In this document: positions 6,930 to 48,786 of the stretch, piece by piece
How the letters are laid out: every line of letters begins with the position of its first letter
Position numbering within the stretch: the first letter of the stretch is position 1
The notes under the pieces: model-generated
The model's input: only the letters and a program-made list of their open reading frames with translations
Told to the model about the DNA's origin: nothing
The model's database searches: none
DNA from: Rhodoferax sp.
Lineage (GTDB): Bacteria > Pseudomonadota > Gammaproteobacteria > Burkholderiales > Burkholderiaceae_C
Direction: 5' to 3'
DNA: 50,369 bases
NCBI RefSeq assembly: GCF_025354435.1
Contig: NZ_JANXMU010000071.1
Coordinates: 1-50,369 of the forward strand
Position numbers and translations under genes: made by a program

Positions 6930-8132
6930 ATGAACCAAGCATTTATCTGCGATGCCATCCGCACCCCCTTTGGCCGCTACGGCGGTGCCCTGAGCAGCGT
7001 GCGCGCCGATGACCTCGGTGCCATTCCCCTGCGGGCGCTGATGGCCCGCAACCCCAAGGTTGACTGGGCGGCAGTCACCGATGTCATCTACGGCTGCGCC
7101 AACCAGGCCGGTGAAGACAACCGCAACGTGGCCCGCATGAGCGCGCTGCTGGCGGGCCTGCCGCTGGCGGTGCCCGGCTCTACCGTGAACCGCCTGTGCG
7201 GCTCGGGTTTGGATGCTTTAGGCACTGCAGCGCGCGCCATCAAAGCTGGAGAAGCTACATTAATGATAGCAGGCGGTGTGGAAAGCATGAGCCGTGCCCC
7301 CTTCGTCATGCCCAAGGCCGAGTCCGCCTTCAGCCGCAGCAACGCGGTGCACGACACCACCATCGGCTGGCGCTTTATCAACCGGCTGATGAAAGAGCAG
7401 TACGGCGTGGACTCCATGCCCGAAACGGCAGAGAACGTGGCTACCGACTTCCGCATCAGCCGCGAAGACCAGGACACCATGGCCTTGCACAGCCAGTTGC
7501 GTGCCGTGGCCGCGCAAAAAGCCGGGCACCTGGCGCGCGAGATCACCGCCGTCACCATCCCGCAAAAAAAAGGCGACGCCACCGTGGTGGACACCGACGA
7601 GCACCCGCGTGCCACCAGCATGGAGACCCTGGCCAAGCTCAAGCCCGTGGTGCGTCCCGGCGGCACAGTCACGGCAGGCAATGTCTCGGGGGTGAACGAT
7701 GGCGCCTGCGCCCTGTTGCTGGCCGATGCAGCCAGCGCTGCTAAATACGGCCTGACTCCGCGTGCCCGCGTGGTGGGTATGGCGACGGCCGGTGTGGCCC
7801 CGCGTGTCATGGGCATCGGCCCGGCACCTGCCACCGAAAAAGTGCTGGCCCTCACCGGCCTGACGCTGGCACAGCTCGACGTGATCGAGCTAAACGAGGC
7901 CTTTGCTGCGCAAGGCCTGGCGGTGCTTCGCCAATTGGGCCTGCAAGACGATGACGAACGGGTGAATGCCTGGGGGGGCGCCATTGCGTTGGGCCACCCT
8001 TTGGGCGCCAGCGGCGCGCGCCTGGCCACCACCGCCATCAATCGCCTGCACGCTACCGGTGGCCGCTATGCGCTGTGCACCATGTGCATCGGCGTGGGCC
8101 AGGGCATTGCCCTTGTATTGGAAAGAATGTGA
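6930..8132 (+). CDS. pcaF: 3-oxoadipyl-CoA thiolase
   Basis: The last step of the beta-ketoadipate pathway: CoA-dependent cleavage of 3-oxoadipyl-CoA to succinyl-CoA and acetyl-CoA. The 400-residue thiolase has nucleophile Cys90 in NRLCGSGLDALG, the histidine in GGAIALGHPLGASGAR and the second cysteine in CTMCIGVGQG. The family insertion is present and complete. Codons at about 7211-7270 switch sharply to A/T-rich forms (TTA, ATA, GCT) while encoding a highly conserved stretch. That patch matches the dispersed 48-bp element. An 18-bp near-palindrome starts two bases after the stop. Confidence 0.95.
   Translation: MNQAFICDAIRTPFGRYGGALSSVRADDLGAIPLRALMARNPKVDWAAVTDVIYGCANQAGEDNRNVARMSALLAGLPLAVPGSTVNRLCGSGLDALGTAARAIKAGEATLMIAGGVESMSRAPFVMPKAESAFSRSNAVHDTTIGWRFINRLMKEQYGVDSMPETAENVATDFRISREDQDTMALHSQLRAVAAQKAGHLAREITAVTIPQKKGDATVVDTDEHPRATSMETLAKLKPVVRPGGTVTAGNVSGVNDGACALLLADAASAAKYGLTPRARVVGMATAGVAPRVMGIGPAPATEKVLALTGLTLAQLDVIELNEAFAAQGLAVLRQLGLQDDDERVNAWGGAIALGHPLGASGARLATTAINRLHATGGRYALCTMCIGVGQGIALVLERM
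7223..7270 (-). repeat. 48-bp dispersed element, copy inside pcaF
   Basis: Read on the minus strand this is GCTAT-N7-GTAGC-N20-GCGCTGCAGTG. The spacing is exact and the last block has 7 of 11 matches. It encodes thiolase residues around 99-113, which are highly conserved in the family, so the element replaces codons rather than adding sequence. Confidence 0.6.
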
Positions 8133-8412
8133 TGGCTGGATGCATCCGGCCGCCCATTCCCACAATGGATCGGCGATGCCAGGCCCAGTCAGATGGTGGA
8201 TGGCGAGATGGATAAACCTTGGAGCACTTTAAGTGCGCGTTGGTAGAGATAGCCGGGAACGTGTACGTCGTCGCTTCAGCGCCGTTTTGGCGGCCGAAGA
8301 TGGAGAAGGCATTGGGGGCTACTCCATGTAGAGCCATGAAGAACCCGACCGAGTAACGCCCGATACCAATTCGGGTGGTACCGCAAACCCACAAGCCATA
8401 TCGCAGAAAATG
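8133..8412. other. Unassigned gap after pcaF
   Basis: 280 bp with no gene I can support. It opens with a near-palindrome GGCTGGATGCATCCGGCC (8134-8151), possibly a weak terminator of pcaF. It also contains the palindrome GCACTT-T-AAGTGC at 8224-8236. A minus-strand open frame covers 8053-8394 but resembles no family I know and runs into pcaF. The gap may be a decayed gene or mobile-element remnant. Confidence 0.4.
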
Positions 8413-8451
8413 AAAAAGTCGTTGTAAATCATAGATTTACAACGACTTTTT
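8413..8451 (-). terminator. Strong bidirectional terminator after the tRNA cluster
   Basis: A perfect 18-bp inverted repeat (8413-8430 and 8434-8451) with a three-base loop and A/T tracts at both ends. It can stop transcripts from either side: the minus-strand tRNA cluster and plus-strand readthrough from pcaF. Confidence 0.9.
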
Positions 8452-13099: not shown

Positions 13100-14389
13100 T
13101 CAGGAACCCATGTGTTTGGCAGTCAGCCGGGGAATACCGCCTTGGAGGACGCCGCCGACCGTGTAAAACGAGCCAAAGACCACAATTCTATCAGCGGGGT
13201 CTGCGGCAGCGATGGCCGCCTGCAACGCCTGCATGGGGTCGGCGTGAACCGTGCTGGCTGCATTTTTACGGGTATTTTGGGCCAGCCACTGGGTTTGCAA
13301 GTGCGCCGCCGTGGCCGCACGGGGGGTGGGCATGTCGGTGAAATACCAGCGGTCGATCAGCGGGCCGATGCGCGCCAGCATGGGCAGCAAGTCTTTATCG
13401 GCCATGGCCCCGAAAACCGCATGGGTGGTGGGATAAAAGCCCATGGCATCCAGGTTCGCCGCCAGCGCCGCCACCGCGTGCGGGTTGTGCGCCACGTCCA
13501 GCACCAAGGTGGGCTGGCCGGGCACGATCTGGAAGCGGCCCGGCAGTTCGACCATGGACAAACCGGTGCGCACCGCCTGGGCGGTGATGGGCAACTGTTC
13601 GCGCAGCGCGGTCAGCGCCGCCAGCACGCCCGAGGCGTTCACGAGCTGGTTGGCCCCGCGCAGCCCCGGGTAGCCCAGGCCCGCGTACCGGCGCCCGCGC
13701 CCGGCCCAGCCCCACTGCTGCTTGTCGCCCGAGAAGTTGAAGTCTTCGCCAAAGCGCCACAGGTCGGCACCGATAGATTTGGCGTGGTCCAGCACGCTTT
13801 GCGGCGGCATGGGGTCGCTGACCACCACCGGCTTGCCCGCGCGCATGATGCCGGCCTTCTCGAAGCCAATGGCTTCGCGGGTGGTGCCCAAAAATTCCAT
13901 GTGGTCCAGGTCGATGCTGGTGATGATGGCGCAGTCAGTATCGATGATGTTGACGGCATCCAGCCGCCCGCCCAGGCCCACTTCCAGAATCGCCACATCC
14001 AGCTGGGACTGCGCCATCAGCGCCAAAATCGCCAGGGTCGAAAATTCAAAATAGCTTAAGGAAATATCGCCTCTTGCGCTCTCCACCTCTGCAAAGTGCG
14101 CTACAAAATCCGCAGCACCTGCAATCTCGCCGCCAATCCGGCAGCGCTCTTCAAAATGCACTAGGTGCGGCGAGGTGTAGACCCCCGTGCGGTAGCCCGA
14201 TTGCAGCAGGATGGCTTCCAGCATGGCGCAGGTCGAGCCCTTGCCGTTGGTGCCCGCTACGGTGATGACCGGGCAGGCAAGCGCCAAGCCCATGCGTTGG
14301 GCCACGGTGCGGACCCGGTCCAGGCCGAGTTCGATGATGGTGGGGTGGAGCCGCTCGCAGTGCGCCAGCCAGTCGTTCAAAGTGTCCAT
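13100..14389 (-). CDS. folC: Bifunctional folylpolyglutamate/dihydrofolate synthase
   Basis: Adds glutamate to folates, and in many bacteria also makes dihydrofolate. The P-loop VAGTNGKGSTCAML lies at residues about 44-57, YTSPHLVHFEERC near 75 and the conserved SLSYFEFSTLAIL near 115. I choose ATG 14389 (MDTLNDWLAH) because the frame's earlier methionine at 14422 adds unlike residues and would overlap the divergent gene. A patch of A/T-rich codons around 14069-14116 matches the 48-bp element. Confidence 0.94.
   Translation of the reverse strand: MDTLNDWLAHCERLHPTIIELGLDRVRTVAQRMGLALACPVITVAGTNGKGSTCAMLEAILLQSGYRTGVYTSPHLVHFEERCRIGGEIAGAADFVAHFAEVESARGDISLSYFEFSTLAILALMAQSQLDVAILEVGLGGRLDAVNIIDTDCAIITSIDLDHMEFLGTTREAIGFEKAGIMRAGKPVVVSDPMPPQSVLDHAKSIGADLWRFGEDFNFSGDKQQWGWAGRGRRYAGLGYPGLRGANQLVNASGVLAALTALREQLPITAQAVRTGLSMVELPGRFQIVPGQPTLVLDVAHNPHAVAALAANLDAMGFYPTTHAVFGAMADKDLLPMLARIGPLIDRWYFTDMPTPRAATAAHLQTQWLAQNTRKNAASTVHADPMQALQAAIAAADPADRIVVFGSFYTVGGVLQGGIPRLTAKHMGS
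14069..14116 (-). repeat. 48-bp dispersed element, copy inside folC
   Basis: On the minus strand this is GCTGC-N7-GTAGC-N20-GCGCAAGAGGC, with the exact spacing of the intergenic copies and 10 of 11 matches in the last block. It is read in the sense direction of folC and encodes residues roughly 91-107, just before the conserved SYFEF motif, without disturbing the frame. Confidence 0.65.
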
Positions 14390-14420
14390 AGCCCCTATTG
14401 TCGCAAACGATAATCGGCCC

Positions 14421-14774
14421 ATGATTACCCTCTACGGCATCCCCAATTGCGACACGGTCAAAAAGGCCCGCGCCTGGCTCGACACCCACGCCCTGCCCTA
14501 CAGCTTCCACGACTTCAAAAAAGCCGGTGTACCCGCTGACCGGCTGGCCACCTGGACCCAGATTTTGGGCTGGGAGAAAGTGCTGAACCGCCAGGGCACC
14601 ACTTGGCGCAAGCTGGACGCGGCCACCCAGGCCAGCGTGACCGATGCGGCCAGCGCCCAGGCGGTAATGCTGGCGCATGCCAGCACAGTCAAGCGCCCGG
14701 TGGTGGAATGGGGGGGTGATGTCCTTACAGTGGGCTTTAGCCCGGATGCCTGGGCCGACAAGATTCCCGGTTAA
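14421..14774 (+). CDS. ArsC/Spx/YffB-family thioredoxin-fold protein
   Basis: A 117-residue protein of the ArsC-like fold. The N-terminus is MITLYGIPNCDTVKKARAWL, with one cysteine in the place of the thioredoxin motif. SFHDFKKAGVP and the C-terminal KRPVVEW segment follow. It matches the YffB-type reductase branch rather than true arsenate reductases, which have extra arsenate-binding arginines. It diverges from folC with about 31 bp between starts. No strong ribosome site is visible. Function unknown, possibly glutathione-dependent thiol reduction. Confidence 0.8.
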   Translation: MITLYGIPNCDTVKKARAWLDTHALPYSFHDFKKAGVPADRLATWTQILGWEKVLNRQGTTWRKLDAATQASVTDAASAQAVMLAHASTVKRPVVEWGGDVLTVGFSPDAWADKIPG

Positions 14775-15420: not shown

Positions 15421-15491
15421 GCCAACCATGTCAGCACAATTGCAGCGCTTAAAATCCGGGAACGCGTAGCTGCCGAATTTAGATAAAAAGT

Positions 15492-15539
15492 GCCTCTAGC
15501 GCATGTTATATCTAGGCAAGAAGCTACACAAACAGTAGC
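15492..15539 (-). repeat. 48-bp dispersed element, intergenic copy
   Basis: On the minus strand this is GCTAC-N7-GTAGC-N20-GCGCTAGAGGC, a perfect copy of the three fixed blocks. It lies in the 136-bp gap before ppnP, ending 17 bp before its start codon, so it would be part of the ppnP leader. An A-run (AAAAAG) precedes it at 15485-15490. Confidence 0.85.
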
Positions 15540-19629: not shown

Positions 19630-19630
19630 T

Positions 19631-20807: not shown

Positions 20808-20830
20808 ACTCAAAAATTTATATAAAAAGT

Positions 20831-20878
20831 GCCTCTAGCGCATGTACCACCTACGCTAGTAGCTATTTAAATTATAAC
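20831..20878 (-). repeat. 48-bp dispersed element, intergenic copy
   Basis: On the minus strand this is GTTAT-N7-ATAGC-N20-GCGCTAGAGGC, preceded on the plus strand by AAAAAGT. It lies 23 bp upstream of the ybaK start. By my count it matches the glycosylase-gene copy at 35 of 48 bases, the same as its match to the other intergenic copy at 23078. Confidence 0.85.
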
Positions 20879-30467: not shown

Positions 30468-30483
30468 ACCTAGGGTCTTCTGT

Positions 30484-30502: not shown

Positions 30503-30520
30503 CTCCACGGCATACCGCCC

Positions 30521-31888: not shown

Positions 31889-32093
31889 GGACTCCAGGGG
31901 GTTCGGCGTGCCGTTTTCAAAAACCCGACGAAAAGCGTCAAAAAGTCCAATGCTGACAACAACTTAAGCCCTCTCCTGTTCACTGCACCTGTTCATTTTG
32001 AACAGTAGCCCAGTCGGCCCCCTCAAGTTGCCCCTGTGGCGCGCCGACTGCGGCCCTGTTGTGCCCCGAACTGGGGCCTTGAGACTCACGCCA
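31889..32093. other. Convergent gap with CTGTTCA repeats
   Basis: 205 bp between the integrase and the convergent ParB-like gene. CTGTTCA occurs at 31976 and 31989, and the second copy forms a perfect inverted repeat CTGTTCA-TTT-TGAACAG (31989-32005). GCCCC-GAACT-GGGGC lies near 32074. These may be a terminator pair or binding sites. No gene is evident. Confidence 0.5.
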
Positions 32094-32852: not shown

Positions 32853-33454
32853 CGTGTGCCCGCCTTCTTGGAAGCGGCCCGGCTGGTGGCTTTCGGTTTC
32901 TTGTGAGGCTTGCGGTTCCTGCTCATGATCTTCCACGCACTGCGCTGCCCATCTCGCTCCTCAAGGGTATCTTCGCGGGTGCGCTCATACTTTGCCGCCA
33001 AGCCCTGCGCGGCCACCTCGGCCAGCACCTGCGCCTGTGCCTGCGCCTCCTCGGGAGAGGTCGCCTGCAGTAGCCTCTCCTCCCCTCGGACATACACGCC
33101 ATCACGCTGGATGGCTGGGAGCACATGCCCCGTAACCCACTTGCGGAACTCAACGGCGGCAGGCTTGCGGCTTTGCAGGGCCATTGCATATAGCCCTGAC
33201 TGGTTCACGGTGACAAACGTCTGCACACCTCCGGGGGTGGACAATTGTGTAGAACCCTTTTCCTCGGGGCTCAGCGCAAGCAGGGAGCGGTAGGCATTGG
33301 ACAAGCCCAGCGCCGCGCAGGCATCTTTGACCACAAACCAATGTTGCCCATCGGGGCCTATGGATGTGCGCAGGGCGTGTGCCTGTCCTTCACGGATGAA
33401 GTGCAGGGCCGGGACGGCTGAGGATTCAGCGAGAGATAAAGAGAGCTGGAACAT
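32849..33454 (-). CDS. Bro-N family phage antirepressor-like protein
   Basis: About 201 residues. The Bro-N domain (about 15-115) is recognisable from WFVVKDACAALGLSNAYRSL, the FVTVNQSGLYAMALQSRK core and the EFRKWVTGHVLPAIQRDG end. The rest is a charged, lysine-rich tail (KPHKKPKATSRAASKK) likely to bind nucleic acid. Bro-N proteins are DNA-binding antirepressors of temperate phages. I prefer ATG 33454; GTG 33469 would add five residues. It overlaps genes on both sides. Confidence 0.82.
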   Translation of the reverse strand: MFQLSLSLAESSAVPALHFIREGQAHALRTSIGPDGQHWFVVKDACAALGLSNAYRSLLALSPEEKGSTQLSTPGGVQTFVTVNQSGLYAMALQSRKPAAVEFRKWVTGHVLPAIQRDGVYVRGEERLLQATSPEEAQAQAQVLAEVAAQGLAAKYERTREDTLEERDGQRSAWKIMSRNRKPHKKPKATSRAASKKAGTR

Positions 33455-33668
33455 TGTTTTGTGCTTCACTGCGGATTGACCGCTCAGGGGTTGAATGGGT
33501 TTGGTGTTCGCGGATGATCTGGCTGACCACCTGCGAAATGCTCAGACGGTCTCCGTGGCGGGCCTCTTGGCCGCGCTGGGTGTCCTTGATGTAGTCAAAG
33601 ACCGAGACCGGGAGGGCCAGATTGCGGAAGACCGCCTTTTCTGGGTGGGGGCTCGTGGCGGCGCTCAT
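33426..33668 (-). CDS. Small ribbon-helix-helix-type protein
   Basis: 80 residues starting at ATG 33668, which overlaps the upstream stop (ATGA). The core KAVFRNLALPVSVFDYIKDT followed by RLSISQVVSQIIREHQ has the strand-helix-helix pattern of Arc/MetJ-like repressors. It is a candidate repressor of its own operon, with the downstream Bro-N protein as possible antirepressor. Assignment rests on pattern only. Confidence 0.6.
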   Translation of the reverse strand: MSAATSPHPEKAVFRNLALPVSVFDYIKDTQRGQEARHGDRLSISQVVSQIIREHQTHSTPERSIRSEAQNNVPALFISR

Positions 33669-34048
33669 GCTTTGAATGCCGTGATACCCGTGGAATCCAA
33701 CTTCCATAGCGGGTCATTCTGAATGTCGTAGTTCGCCCGCATCGCCGCCCGTTGTGCCTCATCGGTGGCATTGAGCGCAGCCTCTCGGATGCCCCGGGAG
33801 TCGGCGATAAGCATCCGCACGAGGGCATCAACGGGGGCTGTTTCGCCAGATTCAAAGGCCCCGCGTAGCTCAAGGCCGTGCGAGATACAGAGCACGCCCC
33901 ATATTTCCTCCTGGTAGTCCACCAGCTCCTGCAAGGTTTCCGGTGTGATGGATGCGCGAAGTGCTTTAACTTGGCGGGGGTCTAACCACACGTCCGGCAT
34001 TGCGGGGGCTTGAGGTGCGGGCGTGGCTGTGGCTTTGGTGGTTTTCAT
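33665..34048 (-). CDS. Unknown island protein, first gene of the minus-strand operon
   Basis: 127 residues, acidic and mostly helical (VKALRASITPETLQELVDYQ; DALVRMLIADSRGIREAALN). An Ala/Pro/Thr-rich N-terminal 20 residues may be disordered. No family is recognised. The ATG at 34048 has GAAAG upstream. The four genes 34048 to 32094 overlap by a few bases each, so this product is made with the ribbon-helix-helix, Bro-N and ParB-like proteins. Confidence 0.65.
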   Translation of the reverse strand: MKTTKATATPAPQAPAMPDVWLDPRQVKALRASITPETLQELVDYQEEIWGVLCISHGLELRGAFESGETAPVDALVRMLIADSRGIREAALNATDEAQRAAMRANYDIQNDPLWKLDSTGITAFKA

Positions 34049-34559
34049 TGATTCAATCTTTCGGGGTTGGTAAGTGCTGCGGAAGTGCAGCGGAGACGGG
34101 TGATAAAACGGCAGAAACCGCCGGGCGAAATACCCGGCTTTTGGCTCTTTGTTTTAGCGATGGTGTGGGTTTAGCAAGGAAAACGGCCCCAGCCCTTATC
34201 TGGCTTTAATTTCACAGCAGTTTTTCATAGCACTGAAAACGATTTAACCGGCACATAGCTACACCAGCATCAAAAGTCCAATAAGTCGGCTCACGCAGCC
34301 TCTGGATAGCCTTCCTGAGCCCCTGCAAATATCCTTCCGTGTTGGGTGGGCTGCACTGCGCACTGGCGGTTTCTTCTGTTCTAGCTAGGGTCGGGGGCAT
34401 GGAGGGGGAAACATCCAGAAAACCTACGCAAGCCTTTGATTCATATGGCGATAGCACCGCGTGCACGGCCTCTGCCAGCCCCCAGAAACACCAAAGGACC
34501 GATACGGCCCCTTGCTTGGCCCTTCACGGGGCCGGTGATTGCCCCGCTGGGCGCTGTGG
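34049..34559. other. Island region without a secure gene
   Basis: Contains the leader of the minus-strand operon. A hairpin CCGGG-CGAAATA-CCCGG lies at about 34121-34137. A minus-strand open frame from GTG 34466 to 34212 (84 codons) is possible but resembles nothing I know and lacks a clear ribosome site. Open frames on the plus strand are no better supported. Confidence 0.35.
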
Positions 34560-34850
34560 TCAGCCAGCACGCCGCGCCTCACGGAAGAATGCGAACTCCC
34601 CCCGCCCGACGTGCAGGTAATAGCACCTGTCGCTACCTGAATTCACCGCCCATGCATCGGTGTGCGCCATATGCTGGGGATGAACCTGAAAATGAACGCC
34701 CCATACATCCGGCGTGAACCGGGAAACGATGGCCGCTGCGCCCTCCCCAAGTACATCCAGGACATGCACCGTGCGGCCTAGGAGGCGGTCCCATGCCCGC
34801 TGTGCAATGGTGGTGGGGGCTGGTGTGATGGGGTCGGTAGCGCTGTGCAT
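34560..34850 (-). CDS. Small unknown island protein
   Basis: 96 residues from ATG 34850, with AAGGGA about 11 bases upstream. The sequence looks like a real folded protein (LLGRTVHVLDVLGEGAAAIV; DVWGVHFQVHPQHMAHTDAW; CYYLHVGRGEFAFF). No family is recognised. A 15-bp-arm inverted repeat lies 100 bp upstream and may control it. Confidence 0.5.
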   Translation of the reverse strand: MHSATDPITPAPTTIAQRAWDRLLGRTVHVLDVLGEGAAAIVSRFTPDVWGVHFQVHPQHMAHTDAWAVNSGSDRCYYLHVGRGEFAFFREARRAG

Positions 34851-34951
34851 TCTGTGGTGTCCCTTGAGGTGAATTGCAGGGCACCGAATGCGCCCTGTGC
34901 GGCGGACTATACCACTCAAAAATCATAGCTACATAGCAAGCACCCATATAT

Positions 34952-34996
34952 GGAATCGTCTCATTTGTGGAATGATTACCGAAGTGAGATGATTCC
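34952..34996. promoter_or_regulatory. Long imperfect inverted repeat, candidate operator
   Basis: GGAATCGTCTCATTT (34952-34966) is repeated in inverse form at 34982-34996 with two mismatches, separated by 15 bp. It lies between the recombinase gene's 3' end and the start of the small gene at 34850, in an A/T-rich stretch. Confidence 0.55.
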
Positions 34997-35073
34997 AAAA
35001 ATGGATTAAACCGGGGCGGGCTATTCACCGCTGCATCGGTGCGCAAAAAACAGGTGCAGACAGCCCCGCGCCC

Positions 35074-35664
35074 TCAATCCTTCAAGGCCGCATAAACCGT
35101 GGTCCGTGAGACGCCCAGTTTCACCGCCGCCTGCGCCTTGGGCATTCCTCCCACCACCAGCGCCCGCAGCTCCACCACCTGCGCAGGGCTCAGCGAAGCC
35201 TTGCGGCCCGTGTAAACGCCCCTGGTCTTGGCACTGGCGATGCCCTCACGCTGGCGTTCCAGGATCAGGGAGCGCTCAAACTGCCCCACGGCCCCTAGCA
35301 GTTGCAGCAGCAGCGTATTCATAGGCGAATCATCCCCGGTGAACGTCATATTCTGGGTGACGAAATTGACCGCCACGCCTTTGGCCGTGAGTCCCTTCAC
35401 GATACCCTCAAGGTCACCCAAAGACCGGGCCAAGCGGTCCATGCTGTGAACTAGCACCGTATCACCTGCACGGACGAACTCAAGCATGGCCTGCAACTGT
35501 GGCCGCTGGGTGTCCTTCCCGCTGGCCTTGTCGGTGAAGGTCTTATTGGTGTGGATGCCATCCAGTTGGCGGGCGGTGTTCTGGTCAACACTGCTAACGC
35601 GGACATAGCCTACAGTTTGGCCCTTGGGGGCTGCTGGCGCTGTGCTGGGGGTGCTGGTGCTCAT
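35074..35664 (-). CDS. Serine recombinase (resolvase/invertase family)
   Basis: 196 residues from ATG 35664. The catalytic N-terminal domain has the nucleophile serine in GYVRVSSVDQNTARQL. It continues with KDTQRPQLQAMLEFVRAGDT and the arginine-containing SMDRLARSLGDL. The C-terminal helix-turn-helix of resolvase type is GMPKAQAAVKLGVSRTTVYA. It could invert or resolve DNA within the island or be a tool of excision. A textbook promoter lies 38 bp upstream. The longer frame to 35730 is unlikely to be used because that promoter lies inside it. Confidence 0.9.
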   Translation of the reverse strand: MSTSTPSTAPAAPKGQTVGYVRVSSVDQNTARQLDGIHTNKTFTDKASGKDTQRPQLQAMLEFVRAGDTVLVHSMDRLARSLGDLEGIVKGLTAKGVAVNFVTQNMTFTGDDSPMNTLLLQLLGAVGQFERSLILERQREGIASAKTRGVYTGRKASLSPAQVVELRALVVGGMPKAQAAVKLGVSRTTVYAALKD

Positions 35665-35701
35665 GGTCAATCTGTCCGTATGGTTGGTTGTGTACAGATA
35701 G

Positions 35702-35730
35702 ATTCTAAGACCCAATACGTAAAGTGTCAA
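35702..35730 (-). promoter_or_regulatory. Promoter of the serine recombinase gene
   Basis: On the minus strand, TTGACA (35725-35730), a 17-bp spacer and TAGAAT (35702-35707). It is one of the few near-consensus promoters in the window. Confidence 0.8.
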
Positions 35731-35802
35731 TCAATTTATAAAACCACCCCAGACGAACACAATCCACGGGCATTACGCCTGTGCAGTTAGGGTGTACTCC
35801 AG

Positions 35803-36585
35803 ATGGATTCCCCGCAAGCGGTGCAAAATCAACGGATGAACCAATTCACAGGGGCACAACAGATTGAGGACCTCACGGCAGACGCTCTCCAATTTATCGC
35901 AGAGCTGAACCGCTTTGCAGAGAGTGTCCTAGGAGGGCCGCAAATTGGACTAACTGACAGGGACCAGTTTCTTCTAGCTCACCGCTGGAGAATGCTGCGG
36001 TTTTCTCAAGGCATTGAAAGCACGGCAGCCGGCGGACTCATAGACCCCGCTGGGGCCTTGCTGCGCGTCCTCATAGAGCTTTGGTATGTGCTCGTAGCGA
36101 TTGCAGATAACCCGGACAAATTAAGCGACCTCTTTAGTCAGGGCCAAGCCGAAGGCCGCAACGCTCTTGAAGGACTCAAACAATTAGGGCCGGATGAACG
36201 CGATGATCTGCTGACTGATGACTTTCTTGATGCCGAGATGGCTAACCTGAATGCAGGAACTAAGTTCGTGGCACACAACTGGGCGGGGCTGGCGAAATCA
36301 AAAGGCAACTACGTCACCATCTATCGTTTATTGTGCAGACATTCGCACGGCGGTTCAGCAGGCACTTGCGACTACTTCGATGGGCTCAACACTGACTCAC
36401 CACGCCTGCGCCCTAATATTCCAAGGCGGTTGGCACCTGAATATTGTCTAACCGCAGCCTCATTGATGTTCGATGCGCTCACCGTGCTTCCATTGCAAAC
36501 GATGACCGACGACAGGAAAACGAAACTATTGAGAATGCAAACGACCTTGAACACTTTTAGGGTGCGCGCAGACAAGCGAGACTAA
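35803..36585 (+). CDS. Unknown protein, DUF5677-like, island cargo
   Basis: 260 residues, soluble and helical. The pattern GALLRVLIELWYVLVAIADN, then YVTIYRLLCRHSHGG, recalls DUF5677-type proteins, with a helix pair and a conserved Tyr...His region. The R-x4-H-x-H text in that segment also resembles the RNase motif of HEPN proteins, but this is only a resemblance. Its codons are noticeably more A/T-rich than host genes, and it is the gene nearest the right attachment site, a usual place for accessory cargo. A defence role is conjecture. Confidence 0.5.
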   Translation: MDSPQAVQNQRMNQFTGAQQIEDLTADALQFIAELNRFAESVLGGPQIGLTDRDQFLLAHRWRMLRFSQGIESTAAGGLIDPAGALLRVLIELWYVLVAIADNPDKLSDLFSQGQAEGRNALEGLKQLGPDERDDLLTDDFLDAEMANLNAGTKFVAHNWAGLAKSKGNYVTIYRLLCRHSHGGSAGTCDYFDGLNTDSPRLRPNIPRRLAPEYCLTAASLMFDALTVLPLQTMTDDRKTKLLRMQTTLNTFRVRADKRD

Positions 36586-36813
36586 GGCACGATGGACAGA
36601 AACGCTTGCCCGGCCTCTATACACAGGGCATCAATGAGAACCGAGGGGGGGGGGGGCACGGGGGGAAGACCGCAGAACGAACATATACATAGACCCCAGA
36701 CATTTTTGTGAAGAAAATACGGGAGTGGTAGACTGCGTGGTAACTTCAACCCAGCCACACAGCAAGTCCGTTTAAAATCAACATCTTGCGCTTGGATGTA
36801 TGGTGCATAAAAG
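36586..36813. other. Non-coding right end of the island with a G12 tract
   Basis: 228 bp without a gene. A run of twelve G at 36645-36656 is followed by six more at 36660-36665. Further on are the candidate arm sites and an A/T-rich stretch leading into attR. Confidence 0.6.
36725..36743 (+). promoter_or_regulatory. Candidate integrase arm sites, right
   Basis: GTGGTAG (36725) and GTGGTAACT (36737) repeat with a 12-bp period. The pair matches the left pair at 30484/30496 in word, period and direction. Confidence 0.55.
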
Positions 36814-40693: not shown

Positions 40694-41986
40694 ATGACCA
40701 CCTCCCGTGCGACTTCCCGCGTCCTCACCGGCATCACCACCTCCGGCACCCCCCATTTGGGCAACTACGTGGGCTCCATCCGCCCCTCGGTGCGCGCCAG
40801 CCTGGCTCCCGGGGTCGAGAGCTTCTACTTCCTGGCCGACTACCACGCGCTGATCAAGATCGACGACCCGGCGCGCATCCAGCGCTCCACGCTGGAGATT
40901 GCCGCCAGCTGGCTGGCCGCCGGGCTGGACCCGAGCCGCGTGGCCTTCTACCGCCAGTCCGACATCCCTGAAATCCCCGAGCTCACCTGGCTGCTGACCT
41001 GCATGACGGCCAAGGGCCTGCTCAACCGCGCCCATGCCTACAAGGCCTCGGTGGACAAGAACGTTGCCGCCCAGGCCGACCCGGATGCCGAGATCAACGC
41101 CGGGCTGTTTATGTACCCGGTGCTGATGGCCGCCGACATTGTGATGTTCAACGCCCACAAAGTACCGGTGGGCCGCGACCAGATCCAGCACATCGAGATG
41201 GCGCGCGACATCGCCCAGCGCTTCAACCACAGCTACGGCGATCACTTCGTACTGCCCGAGGCGCTGATCGAAGAGTCCGTGGCCACCCTGCCCGGCCTGG
41301 ATGGCCGCAAGATGAGCAAGAGCTACGACAACACAATTCCGCTGTTCGCACCCAAGGCCGAGCTGCGCAAGCTGATTGCGGGCATCGTCACCGACTCGCG
41401 CGCCCCCGGTGAACCCAAGGACACCGAGGGCTCGGCCCTGTTCCAGATCTACCAAGCCTTTGCCAGCGAAGAGGAAACCGCCCAGTTGCGCCAAGCCTAT
41501 GCCGACGGCATTGCCTGGGGCGATGCCAAACAAACCCTGTTTGAGCGCATCGACTGCGAAGTCGCACCCATGCGCGAGGCCTACCAGCGCTACATGGACA
41601 ACCCCGGTGAGGTGGAAACCATTCTGCGCGCCGGAGCCCTCAAGGCCCGCCAGACCGCCACCCCGTTCATCGCCAAGCTGCGCCACGCCGTCGGCCTGCG
41701 CGACCTGAACGCCCAGGCCACGCAAAAATCGACCAAGGCCGCCAAGGCCGCACTGCCCAGCTTCAAGCAGTACCGCGAAGCGGACGGCAAATTCCATTTC
41801 AAGCTGGTCGATGCCCACGGGCGCTTGCTATTGCTGAGCGCCGGTTTCGATGCCCCCAAGGATGCGGGCACGGCGGTCCGCCAGTTGCAGACCGAAGGCA
41901 TTGCCGCCTTGGGCACGCTGCAGCCGGCCGACGGCGTCACCTTGGACGAGGTAACCCAGGCCCTGGAAGCACTGCAGGCGGCTTAA
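40694..41986 (+). CDS. trpS: Tryptophanyl-tRNA synthetase with C-terminal extension
   Basis: 430 residues from ATG 40694. Class I motifs are HLGN at 21-24 (TPHLGNYVGS) and KMSKS at 206-210. The catalytic body ends near residue 350. An extra 70-80 residues (KFHFKLVDAHGRLLLLSAGF and onward) look like a small YegP/DUF1508-like beta module. This makes the enzyme longer than the roughly 330-residue E. coli form. It is six bases after the M50 gene and overlaps the convergent SDR by four bases. Confidence 0.95.
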   Translation: MTTSRATSRVLTGITTSGTPHLGNYVGSIRPSVRASLAPGVESFYFLADYHALIKIDDPARIQRSTLEIAASWLAAGLDPSRVAFYRQSDIPEIPELTWLLTCMTAKGLLNRAHAYKASVDKNVAAQADPDAEINAGLFMYPVLMAADIVMFNAHKVPVGRDQIQHIEMARDIAQRFNHSYGDHFVLPEALIEESVATLPGLDGRKMSKSYDNTIPLFAPKAELRKLIAGIVTDSRAPGEPKDTEGSALFQIYQAFASEEETAQLRQAYADGIAWGDAKQTLFERIDCEVAPMREAYQRYMDNPGEVETILRAGALKARQTATPFIAKLRHAVGLRDLNAQATQKSTKAAKAALPSFKQYREADGKFHFKLVDAHGRLLLLSAGFDAPKDAGTAVRQLQTEGIAALGTLQPADGVTLDEVTQALEALQAA

Positions 41987-42777
41987 AACGTCCCCGGATA
42001 CGCCCCACCATCGGCCAACACGTTCTGGCCGGTGATGTAGCCCGCATGCGTGCTGCACAAAAACGCGCAGATGGCCCCAAATTCCTCCGGCGTGCCAAAG
42101 CGCTGGGCCGGAATGTCCTGGCGACGCACATCGGCCAGTGCCTCCACGCTTTGGCCGGACTTAGTGGCCGCGCCCTGCATATTGCCGCGCAGGCGGTCGG
42201 TGTCGAACGAGCCCGGCAGCAGATTGTTGATAGTCACGCCCTGCGCCGCCAGCGGGCTGCGCGCCACACCGGCCACAAATCCCGTCAGGCCGCTGCGCGC
42301 ACCGTTGCTCAGGCCCAGCACGTCGATGGGCGACTTCACCGCGCTGCTGGTGATGTTGACGATGCGCCCAAAGCCCCGCGCCGCCATGCCGTCCACCGTG
42401 GCCTTGATCAGTTCGATGGGGGTCAGCATGTTGGCATCCACCGCCTTGATCCAGGTGTCGCGGTCCCAACTGCGGAAGTCGCCCGTGGGCGGACCGCCCG
42501 CGTTGGTGACCACAATGTCAAAGTCAGAGCGGATGGCGAACACGGCGGCCCGGCCTTCTGGCGTGGTGATATCTGCAGCACAAAATAGCACGCTAGCGTA
42601 GGTGCTACCTGCACTATCAGCTATTAATTGCATAGCAGCTGCCTCCAGTACCTCCGCACCGCGCGCCACGATGAGCACGTTCACCCCCTCGCGCACCAGC
42701 GCCTGCGCGCAACCCAGCCCCAGGCCCTTGCTGGCCCCGCACACCAAGGCCCAGCGGCCTGCGATTCCTAAGTCCAT
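41983..42777 (-). CDS. Short-chain dehydrogenase/reductase
   Basis: 264 residues. The cofactor motif is GASKGLGLG at about 14-22. NAGGPPTGDF follows the fourth strand. The catalytic serines are in NITSSAVKSP, and the usual YxxxK tyrosine position is occupied by SNGARSGLTG, so the standard Tyr is missing. This substitution is seen in a subgroup of SDRs resembling 3-oxoacyl-ACP reductases. An A/T-rich patch at 42589-42636 matches the 48-bp element. The substrate is unknown. Confidence 0.85.
   Translation of the reverse strand: MDLGIAGRWALVCGASKGLGLGCAQALVREGVNVLIVARGAEVLEAAAMQLIADSAGSTYASVLFCAADITTPEGRAAVFAIRSDFDIVVTNAGGPPTGDFRSWDRDTWIKAVDANMLTPIELIKATVDGMAARGFGRIVNITSSAVKSPIDVLGLSNGARSGLTGFVAGVARSPLAAQGVTINNLLPGSFDTDRLRGNMQGAATKSGQSVEALADVRRQDIPAQRFGTPEEFGAICAFLCSTHAGYITGQNVLADGGAYPGTF
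42589..42636 (-). repeat. 48-bp dispersed element, copy inside the SDR gene
   Basis: On the minus strand this is GCTAT-N7-ATAGC-N20-ACGCTAGCGTG. The hairpin half is perfect and the spacing exact; the last block has 7 of 11 matches. It encodes residues about 48-63 between two Rossmann strands, a variable part of the fold. Confidence 0.6.
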
Positions 42778-42803: not shown

Positions 42804-43691
42804 TCAGCGCCCGCTGCGGGTAAATACATAAATTCCGGCCACCACCAGCACCGTGCCTGCGGCCACCCAGCCGGTAAACGGCTCACCCAAGATCACCACG
42901 CCCATCAGAATGGTGGACAGCGGCCCCACCATGCCCACCTGCGCGGCCAGGCCAGCGCCCAGGCGTTCGATGGCCATCATCACCATCAGCACCGGGGCGG
43001 CGGTGCAGGCCGTGGCGTTCAGCACCGACAGCCAGATAACTTCGGGTGCCACGATGGCCGCCGACATCGGCCGCACCAGCACAAACTGCAGCAGGCAGCA
43101 CAGACAAGCCACAGTGGTCGCCAGGCCCACCAGCCGGATGGAGCCCAGGCGCTGCACCATCTGGCCGCTGTAGACCAGGTAGATGGCGTAGCTGATGGCG
43201 CTGCCAAACACCAGCACGGCACCCAGGCTCGCGTTCGCGCCCTGGATGTTGATCTCGTGGCCAAACACCAGCACCACACCGGCGTAGCACACGGCCATGC
43301 CCAGGGCCTGGATGCGGGTGATGGGCTTGCGGTACAGCACCCAGCCCATGGCAACGACGATGGTAGGGTTCAGGTACAGGATGAGCCGCTCCAGCGAGGC
43401 GCTGATGTAGCCCAGCCCGGCAAAGTCCAGAAAGCTGGCCAGGTAATAGCCGGTAAAGCCCAGGCCCAGCACGCCCCACCAGTCCTTGCGCGTCAGCGGC
43501 GGTTTGCCGCGGCTGGACCACCAGGCCATGGTGGCAAAGATGGGCAGCGCAAACAGCATGCGGTACATGATGAGCGTGACGGCATCGACCCCGTAGCGGT
43601 AGGCGAGCTTGACGATGATGGCTTTGCCGCTGAAGGCAATCGAACCCACGAGGGCCAGCAGAAGGCCGGATGCTCTATTTTTTGTAGCCAC
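42804..43691 (-). CDS. EamA/DMT-family transporter
   Basis: 295 residues with ten predicted helices in two EamA repeats (AFSGKAIIVKLAYRYGVDA at the start; AAPVLMVMMAIERLGAGLAAQ in the second). The start is GTG 43691, which lies inside a copy of the 48-bp element, so the first codons (MATKNRAS) come from the repeat. No ribosome site is seen. It diverges from a MarR-GNAT gene, a common regulator-exporter arrangement. Confidence 0.85.
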   Translation of the reverse strand: MATKNRASGLLLALVGSIAFSGKAIIVKLAYRYGVDAVTLIMYRMLFALPIFATMAWWSSRGKPPLTRKDWWGVLGLGFTGYYLASFLDFAGLGYISASLERLILYLNPTIVVAMGWVLYRKPITRIQALGMAVCYAGVVLVFGHEINIQGANASLGAVLVFGSAISYAIYLVYSGQMVQRLGSIRLVGLATTVACLCCLLQFVLVRPMSAAIVAPEVIWLSVLNATACTAAPVLMVMMAIERLGAGLAAQVGMVGPLSTILMGVVILGEPFTGWVAAGTVLVVAGIYVFTRSGR

Positions 43692-46641: not shown

Positions 46642-47412
46642 TCAGGCCACAACGGGTTTAAATACTTTCAGCCACTTGGCGGCAGGCAGGCCCCAGCGGG
46701 TCTGGATCACATCGGCGCGTTCCACCAGCGCCTCGCGTGTGGGCCGGGTGGGGTTGCGCTGGGCCAGCACCACGGTGTTGCCCTCGCGCGTGGGTTTGAA
46801 GGCCCACACCGCATCGGCCCCAAAGGCAGCGGTGATCTTCTCCACACTAGCCGGGTAGCTGCTGGATTCGCCAAAAAGATTGACGGTCATGCAGCCTTCT
46901 TCGGTGAGCAACTTGCGGCAGTCGGCGTAGAAGTCGGCGCTGTCCAGCACGGGGGCGGCGGCATCTTCGTCGTACAGGTCCACCTGCAGTGCGTCTACCG
47001 TGCCCGCCCAGTCGGTGTTCTGGATTTTCAGGGCCGCGTCGCCCAGCACGATGTGCAGGCGCTCGTCATCCGGCGGCAGCTTGAACCAGAAGCGGCAGGC
47101 CGAAACGACCTGCGGGTTCAGCTCCACCGCCGTGGTGTTCATGCGCAGCTTCTTGCGGCAAAACTTGGTCAGCGCCGCTGCGCCCAGGCCGAGCTGCATG
47201 GCGTGGCGCTTGGCCACGCTGCTGGGCGGCACAAACAGCAGCCAGGCCATCATGCGCTGCACGTATTCCAGCTCGATCTCGTACGGGGTGTCCAGCAGCA
47301 TCGAGCCCTGGACCCACTCGGTGCCCAGGTGCAGGGTGCGCACGTCGCCGTAGTCGCAAAAGTTGACTTCAGGCAGGGCGGAGGTTGCGCTTGCAACAGA
47401 TTTACGGGCCAT
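46642..47412 (-). CDS. Spermidine synthase-like methyltransferase-fold protein
   Basis: 256 residues from ATG 47412 with the Rossmann-like core of the polyamine synthase superfamily: MQLGLGAAALTKFCRKKL (nucleotide-binding loop), TTAVELNPQVV and DALQVDLYDEDAAAPVL. The usual decarboxylated-SAM gatekeeper motif GGGDG is not seen, so real spermidine synthesis is doubtful. It starts inside the end of the glycosylase gene (11-bp overlap) and ends 7 bp before the GspE start, in one minus-strand unit with tatD. Confidence 0.75.
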   Translation of the reverse strand: MARKSVASATSALPEVNFCDYGDVRTLHLGTEWVQGSMLLDTPYEIELEYVQRMMAWLLFVPPSSVAKRHAMQLGLGAAALTKFCRKKLRMNTTAVELNPQVVSACRFWFKLPPDDERLHIVLGDAALKIQNTDWAGTVDALQVDLYDEDAAAPVLDSADFYADCRKLLTEEGCMTVNLFGESSSYPASVEKITAAFGADAVWAFKPTREGNTVVLAQRNPTRPTREALVERADVIQTRWGLPAAKWLKVFKPVVA

Positions 47413-47938
47413 TAATTTCAATCAGTCCAAATTGTTCAAATACATCCCGCCACGCGGCCAGCTTGCGCTCAAAGCTCCAGCTGGCATTGGCGGGGCTGGT
47501 GGATGGCAGGCGCACGGTAGGCAGGCCCAGATTTTCCAGCCGGGCGGTGTGGCGAAAACTCTCGGCCCCATTGTGCGCGACGGCCCGCAGCTGCGGGCAG
47601 CGCTGGCGCAGGGCCGCGAAGTCATTCACCTCGGCATTGCGGATCTGGCTGTCCAAGCTGCCCTGGCGCTCGCAACTGGCGTACACGTCCCACAGGCCCA
47701 CGCCGTGCGACAGCATCCATTCGCTACGTTTTTCATAGCTACTAGTGTAGATAGCATCTGCGCCAGAGGCATAAATAGCTTGCAAAATCCGCCAAAACTG
47801 GTTTTGCTTATGACCGTAGTACTGCTGCGCCGCCAGCGAGGCTGCCCCCGGAAAACTGCCCAGCACCAGCAGCCGGGTATTGGCCGACACGAGCGGCGGC
47901 AAACCAAACAGCCGGGTGAGCGGGGTGAGCGGGATCAT
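47402..47938 (-). CDS. Uracil-DNA-glycosylase-family DNA-deoxyinosine glycosylase
   Basis: 178 residues. The N-terminal motif VLGSFPGAASLAAQQYYGHK matches motif 1 of the hypoxanthine/uracil glycosylase branch. NQFWRIL and HGVGLWDVYASCER are family signatures, and LPSTSPAN is the C-terminal intercalation motif. It probably removes deaminated adenine from DNA. Its ATG overlaps the tatD stop (ATGA). The stretch between FWRIL and WML is encoded by A/T-rich codons that match the 48-bp element. Confidence 0.85.
   Translation of the reverse strand: MIPLTPLTRLFGLPPLVSANTRLLVLGSFPGAASLAAQQYYGHKQNQFWRILQAIYASGADAIYTSSYEKRSEWMLSHGVGLWDVYASCERQGSLDSQIRNAEVNDFAALRQRCPQLRAVAHNGAESFRHTARLENLGLPTVRLPSTSPANASWSFERKLAAWRDVFEQFGLIEINGP
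47723..47770 (+). repeat. 48-bp dispersed element, copy inside the glycosylase gene
   Basis: GCTAC-N7-ATAGC-N20-GCGCCAGAGGC in exact spacing, antisense to the gene. It matches the intergenic copy at 20831 at 35 of 48 bases. It encodes the loop between FWRIL and SEWML. Confidence 0.8.
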
Positions 47939-48786
47939 GGCAACAAGGCCCGCAAACGCGGCAAGGCGGCCAGCGCGTTGGCGGTGGTGGCAGCTTCAAT
48001 CGCGTCCACCGGCAGCCCACGCAGCCCGGCCAGCACTGCGCCAATGCGCGGCAACTCCAGCGGTGAGTTGATGCCCTGCGGCTGGCCCGCCGCGCGCTGG
48101 GCGGTGGTGGTGTACAGCCACTGGGGCGGAATATCAGGTGCGTCGGTTTCCAGCACCAGGGAATCGAGCGGCAGGCTGGCAGCCAGGCGGCGCAACTGGT
48201 TCGCGGCCTCGAAAGTCATGGCACCGCCAAAGCCGAGCTTGAGCCCGATGGCTATGCAAGCTTGCGCCTGCTGCGGGCTGCCGTTGAAAGCATGGGCAAT
48301 GCCCAGCCAGCGCCCGCCCGGCCCGGCCACGGCGCGCAGGTGTTTCAGCACATGGTCGGCGCTGCGGCGTACGTGCAAGATCACCGGCAGGCCGTGCTTT
48401 TTGGCCAGCTTGAGTTGGGCGCGGTAAAAGAATTGTTGGCGTGCCAGCAGGGTGGGCTCTTGCAGCGCGGGCACAAAGTAGTCCAGCCCGATCTCGCCCA
48501 CGGCTACCAGGCGCGGGTCGTCGCGGTGGGTGGTCAGGGCGGTATCCAGCAGGTCCAGGTCGCCATCTTGGGCGCGGGCCACAAACAGCGGGTGGATGCC
48601 CAGCGCGTAGGCATCGCCCGTTTGGTGGGCCAGCCGGCGCACGGTGTCAAAGTTGGCGGCCAGCACGCCCTGCAAAACACATAACGCTACATTTTTAATA
48701 GCTGCTTGCGCACGTAGATCATGCGCTAGCGCATGATTTTCTTTAAATTCTGGGGCATCCAGATGGCAGTGCGTGTCGATCCACAT
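47935..48786 (-). CDS. tatD: TatD-family metal-dependent DNase
   Basis: 283 residues. The metal-binding HxH is in MWIDTHCHLDAPEF (His6, His8), Glu is in GEIGLDYF, His is in PVILHVRRSADH, and Asp is in LVLETDAPDIPPQ. TatD enzymes are 3'-5' DNases linked to DNA repair. It is first in a minus-strand run with the glycosylase. An A/T-rich patch at 48686-48733 matches the 48-bp element. Confidence 0.92.
   Translation of the reverse strand: MWIDTHCHLDAPEFKENHALAHDLRAQAAIKNVALCVLQGVLAANFDTVRRLAHQTGDAYALGIHPLFVARAQDGDLDLLDTALTTHRDDPRLVAVGEIGLDYFVPALQEPTLLARQQFFYRAQLKLAKKHGLPVILHVRRSADHVLKHLRAVAGPGGRWLGIAHAFNGSPQQAQACIAIGLKLGFGGAMTFEAANQLRRLAASLPLDSLVLETDAPDIPPQWLYTTTAQRAAGQPQGINSPLELPRIGAVLAGLRGLPVDAIEAATTANALAALPRLRALLP
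48686..48733 (+). repeat. 48-bp dispersed element, copy inside tatD
   Basis: GCTAC-N7-ATAGC-N20-GCGCTAGCGCA in exact spacing, antisense to tatD. It encodes residues about 19-33 (ALAHDLRAQAAIKNVA), where the family has a helix and loop of the same length. The reading phase differs from that of the glycosylase copy. Confidence 0.75.

What the first reader, a model, noticed from the sequence alone, without database searches (positions are those of the whole stretch)
7223..48733. A dispersed 48-bp element with fixed internal spacing, about one per 4.5 kb, two thirds of copies inside genes
I find GCTAY-N7-RTAGC-N20-GCGCTAGAGGC at 15492, 20831 and 23078 (intergenic), 43672 (over a start codon), and inside genes at 7223, 14069, 28394, 42589, 47723 and 48686, plus a 47-bp version at 26395. 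The spacing N7 and N20 is the same in all full copies, although the N bases differ. Intergenic copy 20831 matches the coding copy 47723 at 35 of 48 bases, no worse than it matches intergenic copy 23078. From memory, similar GCTAT-type repeats occur in other Comamonadaceae, but I know no description of copies inside genes. This could be a protein binding site, a chromosome-organising or uptake signal, or a mobile repeat.
Basis: seen in the sequence. Interest (0 to 1): 0.85.

Follow-up and report, generated by a model that had tools for sequence, protein, structure and literature searches.

The report
Dispersed DNA tag, probably uptake signal
One long DNA motif is written hundreds of times into both the genes and the gaps of this bacterium and some of its relatives, spelled differently in different species, and it looks most like the tags by which a few other bacteria recognise and take up DNA of their own kind, though uptake itself has not been tested.

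Summary
The repeat is real and about 66 bp long, not 48. A profile trained on other contigs gives 72 hits (20 bits or more) in 450,369 bp against 0 in the reversed sequence; after iteration 86 against 2, about one per 5.2 kb. About one third, not two thirds, lie in genes.

Genic copies did not arrive by insertion: related proteins without the motif align through the site with gaps of 0-9 residues, where an inserted 48-66 bp would give 16-22 (one of eight could not be judged). At 39 of 39 alignable sites a sister species (90% identical) has a copy too, but in its own spelling (held-out test 36/39 and 34/39), also inside genes, where amino-acid divergence is four times that outside. Little covariation, no strand bias, avoidance of foreign-looking DNA.

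Best explanation: a double-strand recognition signal kept by drive, most likely a DNA uptake signal for pilus-mediated transformation. Species-selective transformation is published for this family without a known sequence. Uptake and receptor are inferred.

The parts
14051..14116 (-). Borderline copy inside a Mur-ligase-type gene (13100-14422, minus; FolC-like by recall)
   Evidence: 18.7 bits; Pfam PF02875, PF08245; same place aligned without gaps in five genus relatives
15474..15539 (-). Intergenic copy
   Evidence: 71.6 bits; aligned with genus relatives
20813..20878 (-). Intergenic copy, near consensus
   Evidence: 91.2 bits; G002 ortholog has the other spelling, 72 bits
23060..23125 (-). 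Intergenic copy
   Evidence: 69.2 bits; G002 ortholog in the other spelling, 71 bits
28394..28459 (+). Copy inside the aminopeptidase N (PepN) gene 26615-29308, plus
   Evidence: 41.5 bits; PDB 4qhp aligns through the site with a one-residue gap; Pfam
42571..42636 (-). Copy inside a short-chain dehydrogenase gene 41983-42777, minus
   Evidence: 56.2 bits; present at the same place, ungapped, in G002, G003, G005, G006 and G007; Pfam PF13561
43672..43737 (+). Copy over the start of an EamA-type gene (42804-43691, minus)
   Evidence: 65.6 bits; present at the same place in G002, G003, G005, G007; Pfam PF00892
47723..47788 (+). Copy inside a uracil-DNA-glycosylase-superfamily gene 47402-47938, minus
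   Evidence: 69.8 bits; ungapped in genus relatives; the G004 ortholog has the same length without the motif; Pfam PF03167
48686..48751 (+). Copy inside a TatD-type gene 47935-48786, minus, near its N-terminus
   Evidence: 70.4 bits; Pfam PF01026 from residue 3; PDB 1zzm aligns through with a 3-residue gap

Best explanation
A sequence-specific recognition motif in double-stranded DNA, written into the chromosome in place and held there by a drive; not a mobile repeat. Anatomy: RCTAY, an A/T-rich 7, RTAGCT, a central part of about 25 bp with weak dyad symmetry and a species-specific spelling, GAGGC, an A/T tract and an A/T-rich end. Proposed mechanism: a surface DNA receptor of the type IV pilus uptake machine prefers fragments carrying the motif; after transformation and recombination, alleles nearer to the receptor's preference spread, so matches accumulate at permissive sites in and between genes. 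When the preference shifts, the sites are re-spelled where they stand; when it is lost, they decay. SHOWN here: motif, number, lack of insertion, shared sites, genome-specific spelling, re-spelling inside genes, avoidance of foreign-looking DNA. SHOWN by others: selective, pilus-dependent natural transformation in this family (PMC4212676). INFERRED: that this motif is what is selected at uptake, the receptor, and the drive.
For: Not inserted: 7 of 8 genic copies compared with element-free orthologs differ in length by 0-9 residues, two of them by none in the close orthologs (the eighth lies in a low-complexity linker); PDB relatives align with gaps of 1, 3 and 0 residues. Shared sites, own spelling: 39 of 39 aligned own sites have a G002 element and 39 of 39 aligned G002 elements have an own one; with profiles trained without these pairs, 36/39 own copies prefer the own profile and 34/39 G002 orthologs the G002 profile, genic pairs 15/18 and 15/18. 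Divergence is 0.82 and 0.72 at positions 27 and 37 and 0 at 15-17, against 0.10 over 205,075 aligned bases. Amino-acid divergence is 88/378 inside the element, 405/6983 outside it in the same genes. The more distant G003 keeps the own-type spelling (50 of 66 copies, profile seeded with a blank centre), so the switch lies on the G002/G007 branch of the one-region tree. Foreign avoidance: 7 copies in the 18 5-kb bins of lowest coding score, 79 in the other 72 (Spearman 0.37, p 0.0003). Nearly absent from plasmids (1 and 6 of 72,556 records for two spellings). Orientation in genes 12 same, 15 opposite. ComEC is found in all 14 genomes with 10 or more pattern matches, in G010 in three pieces. Literature: Acidovorax temperans was transformed only by its own species' DNA, and V. 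eiseniae resists competition by unrelated DNA (PMC4212676, passages and discussion part 1); A. facilis carries the element.
Against: No uptake experiment. No receptor: the ComP_DUS pilin family (37 of 40 genomes) and ComEC (35 of 40) also occur in element-free relatives, so presence does not discriminate; G004, with few elements, has an intact-looking ComEC. The motif (48-66 bp, 51-60 bits) is much longer than DUS (12-13 nt) or USS (up to 32 nt). Species barriers in Acidovorax could also come from sequence divergence or restriction. Consensus dyad symmetry is partly re-paired between spellings (A27-T37 against T27-A37), which a hairpin would also show. The site-sharing test saw only alignable DNA: 31 of 70 own sites had no alignment. 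Small samples for G005, G006, G007 (9-10 elements each).
Confidence: 0.55

Rival explanations
1. Binding site of a chromosome-organising or other cellular DNA-binding protein, spread along the chromosome; the spelling changes as the protein's binding face changes.
For: Double-strand motif with dyad-like halves and A/T tracts; spacing in the own sample somewhat more even than random (CV 0.78 against 0.96 +/- 0.10; 1.25% of simulations as low); low in foreign-looking DNA.
Against: No two-arm strand polarity in G011 (53 sites; 88.7% of shuffles at least as polar), and spacing there is near random (CV 0.93). A cellular site in use at hundreds of places should resist wholesale re-spelling. No pattern match in 8 of 24 same-family genomes and few in G004.
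Confidence: 0.25
2. A REP- or MITE-like mobile repeat, perhaps moved by the RAYT-type transposase, with in-frame copies in genes as in Rickettsia palindromic elements (recalled).
For: Hundreds of copies; RTAG followed by an imperfect palindrome resembles REP (recalled); a single RAYT-type gene in the own genome; an element of 18 bits or more lies within about 100 bp of that gene in 10 of 21 loci examined (own, G002, G003, G005, G007, G011, G013, G019, G022 on the 3' side, G017 on the 5' side).
Against: No 16-22-residue insertions in genic copies; 39 of 39 shared sites; paired columns vary nearly independently; the RAYT gene occurs in element-free relatives and in several loci is bracketed by a different repeat, GGGGTCAGATTC (seen by eye); the 3' copies look like one inherited site.
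Confidence: 0.08
3. An RNA-level signal such as a terminator or stability hairpin.
For: Intergenic and gene-end copies are denser between convergent genes (20 in 8,665 bp) than co-directional (32 in 33,752 bp) or divergent ones (7 in 16,982 bp); the central dyad is partly re-paired between spellings.
Against: No orientation preference (codirectional gaps 17 same, 15 opposite; genes 12 same, 15 opposite); within genomes the stem columns pair about as often as independent columns would (largest excess 0.84 against 0.74 at 27-37 own and 0.47 against 0.38 at 28-36 G017); no Rfam match except tRNAs at gathering score.
Confidence: 0.05
4. Another signal of DNA exchange, for example a recombination hotspot or a packaging signal of a gene-transfer agent, with the same drive but a different machine.
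For: All the evidence for in-place drive and re-spelling applies equally.
Against: No such particle or hotspot enzyme was looked for or found; pilus-dependent selective uptake is the published activity in this family (PMC4212676).
Confidence: 0.06

Closest known systems
DNA uptake sequence (DUS) of Neisseriaceae, with dialects (PMC3630211; passages read)
   Same: Abundant, dispersed, in permissive parts of the core genome and inside genes, species-wide dialects, an invariant short core (there CTG, here AGC at 15-17), low in foreign DNA.
   Different: DUS is a contiguous 12-13-mer in thousands of copies; this is a 48-66-bp composite of 51-60 bits at an estimated 890 copies per genome (extrapolated). 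No uptake test and no receptor here.
Uptake signal sequence (USS) of Pasteurellaceae (PMC12616744; passages read)
   Same: A core plus A/T-rich flanking segments at helical spacing; dialects.
   Different: USS has a 9-nt core and reaches about 32 nt; here several conserved blocks with a re-spelled centre.
Spaced motif pairs in Acidovorax ebreus and Polaromonas naphthalenivorans (PMC5217627; passages, section 13 and section 7 part 1 read)
   Same: GCTTAT(N)5AAGCG and ATAGCT(N)22CAAAAG read like pieces of this element; convergent gaps preferred in A. ebreus.
   Different: Reported as unassigned motif pairs, mostly intergenic; no in-place substitution, dialects or uptake link in what I read. I did not align their copies to mine.
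REP elements with RAYT transposase (recalled)
   Same: RTAG followed by an imperfect palindrome, hundreds of copies, one RAYT-type gene.
   Different: Third of the copies in genes, no insertion, near-independent stem columns, shared sites.
BRE of Bordetella and other Betaproteobacteria (PMC3110155; passages and section 14 read)
   Same: Dispersed in Comamonadaceae, some inside coding sequence.
   Different: About 90 bp, GC 69%, often tandem, at most 29 copies; this element has GC 39.9%. Sequences were not aligned.
Rickettsia palindromic elements (recalled)
   Same: One preferred open reading frame in genes.
   Different: Those are in-frame insertions; these are substitutions with small indels.

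Membership tests
DNA uptake sequences (DUS/USS) | Presence raises DNA uptake or transformation | not testable with these tools
   No experiment possible; published selective transformation in Acidovorax and Verminephrobacter (PMC4212676) does not name a sequence in the parts I read
DNA uptake sequences (DUS/USS) | Hundreds to thousands of dispersed copies, far above chance | tested here: met
   517 against 5 for the reversed pattern; 72 against 0 with an independently trained profile
DNA uptake sequences (DUS/USS) | Copies in genes arise by substitution, not insertion | tested here: met
   0-9-residue differences in 7 of 8 cases, the eighth not judgeable; PDB alignments
DNA uptake sequences (DUS/USS) | Species-wide dialects with an invariant short core | tested here: met
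   Profiles of four genomes; held-out test 36/39 and 34/39; positions 15-17 at 98-99% in own, G002 and G017
DNA uptake sequences (DUS/USS) | Depleted in recently acquired DNA | tested here: met
   7 copies in the 18 lowest-scoring bins, 79 in the other 72; proxy is codon score, not a direct test of origin
DNA uptake sequences (DUS/USS) | Short motif (9-13 nt core, up to 32 nt for USS) | tested here: not met
   48-66 bp, 51-60 bits relative entropy; so it is not filed as a DUS or USS, only as working like one
DNA uptake sequences (DUS/USS) | A known pilin receptor (ComP) whose occurrence tracks the motif | tested here: inconclusive
   PF16732 in 37 of 40 genomes, element-free ones included
REP elements / RAYT | Hairpin kept by compensatory change | tested here: not met
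   Pair frequencies near the independence expectation in three genomes; partial re-pairing between dialects at 27-37 leans the other way
REP elements / RAYT | Copies flank the transposase gene | tested here: inconclusive
   Element beside the gene in 10 of 21 loci, on one side only; a different repeat brackets the gene in several
REP elements / RAYT | Extragenic | tested here: not met
   27 of 86 wholly genic
Rickettsia palindromic elements | In-frame insertion of the whole element | tested here: not met
BRE (Bordetella) | GC-rich (69%) repeat of about 90 bp, often tandem | tested here: not met
   GC 39.9% over 66 bp; gaps between copies 114 bp or more; sequences not aligned
Chi/KOPS-type polar signals | Strand polarity along the replichores | tested here: not met
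   G011, 53 sites: statistic 13 against a shuffled mean of 16.5; own sample 42 and 44 per strand on unordered contigs

The most novel reading that the evidence does not exclude
A third, independent family of self-DNA uptake signals, in Comamonadaceae, several times longer and richer than DUS or USS, whose receptor preference changed on one branch of a genus so that all the sites examined were re-spelled in place, amino acids in conserved enzymes included; it would account for the unexplained species barrier to transformation among Acidovorax species.
Probability: 0.5. Interest if true: 0.9.

Novelty: new variant of a known kind. Interest (0 to 1): 0.8.

Why it matters
Uptake signals are described in the papers I saw for Neisseriaceae and Pasteurellaceae only. 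A signal in Comamonadaceae, a large environmental group, would give an independent case of sequence-selective transformation, with close sister species that differ in spelling, one relative that seems to be losing it, and culturable strains already shown to be competent. That makes the old question of how uptake signals arise and change testable: the drive can be watched re-writing proteins. It also warns annotators that a segment of about 22 residues in many proteins (for example ALAQ-ESTQ-AIK-VA) reflects a DNA signal, not protein function.

Tried and rejected
Chance or codon bias: rejected by the reversed-sequence and synonymous-shuffle controls. Insertion of a mobile element: rejected for genic copies. 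RNA hairpin: disfavoured. RAYT transposase as mover: single-copy gene in 31 of 40 genomes, element-free ones included; one element lies beside it in 10 of 21 loci, which I could not fully explain. ComP_DUS pilin and ComEC as discriminating receptors or machinery: uninformative. Replication polarity: none in G011. Even spacing: seen in the own sample, not in G011. BRE of Bordetella: different by published length and GC, not aligned. Literature: nine searches listed no description of an uptake sequence in Comamonadaceae; the library lacks most subscription journals. PMC2755013 (passages) held nothing on this repeat.

My gene calls come from a simple codon-score finder and cut some starts short. 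The first own-against-G002 dialect count (37/39 and 37/39) used profiles trained on the same copies and was replaced by the held-out one. For the G004 200-kb sample I report only counts under the three existing profiles, 5, 7 and 7 hits of 20 bits or more; an iterated profile there also collected 13 sequences, several of them implausible.
Full report
WHAT IS THERE. The window is contig C40 of a 4.66-Mb draft genome (89 contigs). I took 400 kb from contigs C8, C33 and C29 plus the window, 450,369 bp in all, and built a profile from 22 copies on other contigs. It gives 72 hits of 20 bits or more and 0 in the reversed sequence; after iteration 86 against 2, at 25 bits 85 against 0. Scores are spread over 20-91 bits with only 4 hits between 8 and 20. 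Extrapolated, the genome holds about 890 copies. The conserved unit is about 66 bp: RCTAY, A/T-rich 7, RTAGCT, a centre, GCGCTAGAGGC, an A/T tract at 51-54 and an A/T-rich end; the tracts may be A-runs or T-runs. Relative entropy is 60, 56 and 51 bits in three genomes.

THE WINDOW COPIES. Eight of the eleven listed score 41.5-91.2 bits; 14069 scores 18.7; 7223 and 26395 are not copies. Their genes: PepN, a short-chain dehydrogenase, a uracil-DNA-glycosylase-superfamily gene, a TatD-type gene, the start of an EamA-type gene, and for 14069 a Mur-ligase-type gene.

WHERE COPIES LIE. Of 86, 27 are wholly in called genes, 7 overlap a gene end, 52 are intergenic. In genes 12 point with the gene and 15 against; 11 of 12 and 13 of 15 sit in one frame, the frame that keeps the motif's own TAG and CTA triplets out of register (my reading of the consensus). 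Intergenic and gene-end copies: 20 in 8,665 bp of convergent gaps, 32 in 33,752 bp of co-directional gaps, 7 in 16,982 bp of divergent gaps; co-directional ones 17 with and 15 against the genes; strands 42 and 44. Synonymous shuffling of 396 genes gives 1.65 hits per round against 28 real. The 18 five-kilobase bins with the lowest coding score hold 7 copies, the other 72 hold 79 (Spearman 0.37, p 0.0003). In the window no copy lies between 28,460 and 42,570, a stretch with a tRNA gene followed by a phage-type integrase and a resolvase.

NOT INSERTED. Eight genic copies were compared with orthologs, among them from G012, G014, G018 and G020, which had no pattern match. ABC transporter: no gap against G012 and G018 (the G014 match looks like a paralog, 3 gaps). 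ProA N-terminus: no gap in six genomes. TruB: 0 (G012) or 4 residues. LeuRS: 6-9. ProA, second copy: 4-9 (and G022, an element genome, is 10 longer). PurK: net 3. C29:18948: 4-5. C29:9502 lies in a low-complexity linker with differences of 2, 4 and 18 and cannot be judged. An insertion of 48 or 66 bp would add 16 or 22 residues. Solved relatives agree: PepN one residue, TatD three, BioF none.

RE-SPELLED IN PLACE. G002, same genus, is 89.9% identical over 205,075 aligned bases. In 400 kb it has 83 copies against 0 in the reversed sequence; G017, another genus, 90 against 0 in 400 kb. Spellings: own ATAGCTaCTaGCGCAGGTggaATATGCGCTAGAGGC; G002 ATAGCTGCTcACGCTgATggaATAAGCGCaAGaGGC; G017 ATAGCTGCTAGCGCTTGcTgGaCaaGCGCTagAGcC. 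Of 70 own sites outside C29, 39 fell in aligned DNA; all 39 have a G002 element, and all 39 G002 elements in aligned DNA have an own one; 31 own sites had no alignment, partly because I had not fetched the matching stretch. With profiles trained on other copies, 36/39 own copies prefer the own profile and 34/39 G002 orthologs the G002 profile; genic pairs 15/18 and 15/18, intergenic 16/16 and 14/16, partial 5/5 and 5/5. Divergence is 0.82 at position 27 and 0.72 at 37, 0 at 15-17, against about 0.10 overall. In the genic pairs 88 of 378 codons differ in amino acid inside the element and 405 of 6983 outside it. The variable positions differ from site to site and the A/T arms are inherited site by site (sequences), which speaks against wholesale gene conversion; that is my reading, not a test.

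WHICH SPELLING IS OLD. A tree from one 4.6-kb region gives (own,(G002,G007)) with full support, then G003 with G004, then G005 and G006. G003, 85% identical to own in that region, was profiled from a seed with a blank centre: 66 copies of 20 bits or more in 400 kb against 0, own-type centre, 50 of 66 preferring the own profile. Small samples agree: own profile preferred in G003 7/9, G005 9/10, G006 8/9; G002 profile in G002 9/10, G007 8/10. So the switch most simply lies on the G002/G007 branch. G002 shares T27 and A37 with G017, so it may be a return or a borrowed preference. G004, same genus, has 5-7 hits of 20 bits or more in 200 kb under three profiles, and G014 none.

DISTRIBUTION. With one mismatch, 16 of 40 genomes match, all within the 24 of the same family; the 16 of other families have none. 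This pattern is fixed on one spelling of the tail, so absence is not proof. Exact matches to a two-dialect pattern occur in Acidovorax, Paenacidovorax, Giesbergeria, Extensimonas, Diaphorobacter and Comamonas jiangduensis and in MAGs, 32 stretches in all; these 249,876 bp hold 56 elements, 32 of them the ones that brought the stretches in, against 0 reversed. Plasmids: 1 of 72,556 records for the own spelling and 6 for the Acidovorax spelling (how many of the records are from this family is not known). Acidovorax spelling: no match in phages or E. coli genomes.

WHAT IT IS NOT. Stem columns pair about as often as independent columns, though the consensus dyad is partly re-paired between dialects at 27-37. 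No strand polarity in G011. A RAYT-type gene is present but not tied to the element across genomes; an element lies beside it in 10 of 21 loci, and the gene has its own bracketing repeat in several.

MECHANISM. What re-spells scattered sites in place, inside conserved enzymes too, without moving them? A trans-acting recogniser with a changeable preference plus a drive. Uptake signals behave so: DUS dialects are species-wide, keep a CTG core and sit in permissive core-genome sites (PMC3630211, passages); USS join a core to A/T-rich segments (PMC12616744, passages). In this family natural transformation depends on type IV pili; A. temperans gave transformants only with its own species' DNA; V. 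eiseniae lost at most about tenfold to a 1500-fold excess of salmon DNA; the authors inferred sequence selectivity, and in the parts I read no sequence is named (PMC4212676). A. facilis, one of their competent species, carries the element (L128, L137). ComEC is in all 14 genomes with 10 or more pattern matches (in three pieces in G010), but also in element-free ones; the ComP_DUS pilin family is in 37 of 40. So the machinery is there and the receptor is not identified.

PRIOR ART. A 2017 survey lists what look like pieces of the element in Acidovorax ebreus and Polaromonas naphthalenivorans and gives Rhodoferax ferrireducens the highest number of motif pairs, 140, without a function (PMC5217627). 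Nothing on uptake sequences in Comamonadaceae was listed.

VERDICT. A real, unusual, genome-wide signal. In-place drive and dialects are well supported; the uptake role is the best reading at 0.55. The length test for DUS/USS is not met, so it is filed as a new variant of the kind, not as a member of either family.

Noticed in passing
window 30349-36600: A tRNA gene followed by a phage-type integrase (30521-31888) and a resolvase (35074-35730) with low coding scores: probably a genomic island; it holds no copy of the element.
   Followed up: partly
L253 (E. coli plasmid pP11b, NZ_MZ513635.1), 1352-1642: The DUF1010 cassette between dfrA12 and aadA2 in a class 1 integron carries a stretch 85% identical over 40 nt to the Acidovorax spelling (E 3e-3), which may hint that this cassette came from a Comamonadaceae genome.
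   Followed up: no
L306:2833-3531 and L329-L348: A single-copy RAYT-type transposase gene is shared by much of the family; in several loci it is bracketed by GGGGTCAGATTC repeats, and an element of this report lies just 3' of it in nine loci and 5' in one.
   Followed up: partly
window 50229-50369: The last about 141 bp of the contig recur at 100% at or near the ends of contigs C87, C88, C30 and C76: an assembly-breaking repeat.
   Followed up: no
L306:3713-8443: The glutamate synthase large subunit gene ends in an element (50 bits), so that its C-terminus reads ALAQAESTQAAIKNEA; in G022 the second ProA site carries 10 extra residues.
   Followed up: no
G010:C1:1836740-1837544: ComEC is hit in three frames in this genome, which has 13 pattern matches: a broken competence gene or assembly errors.
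   Followed up: no
L113, L115, L137: Three Acidovorax records carry an element with nearly identical flanks on both sides, apparently one conserved site.
   Followed up: no
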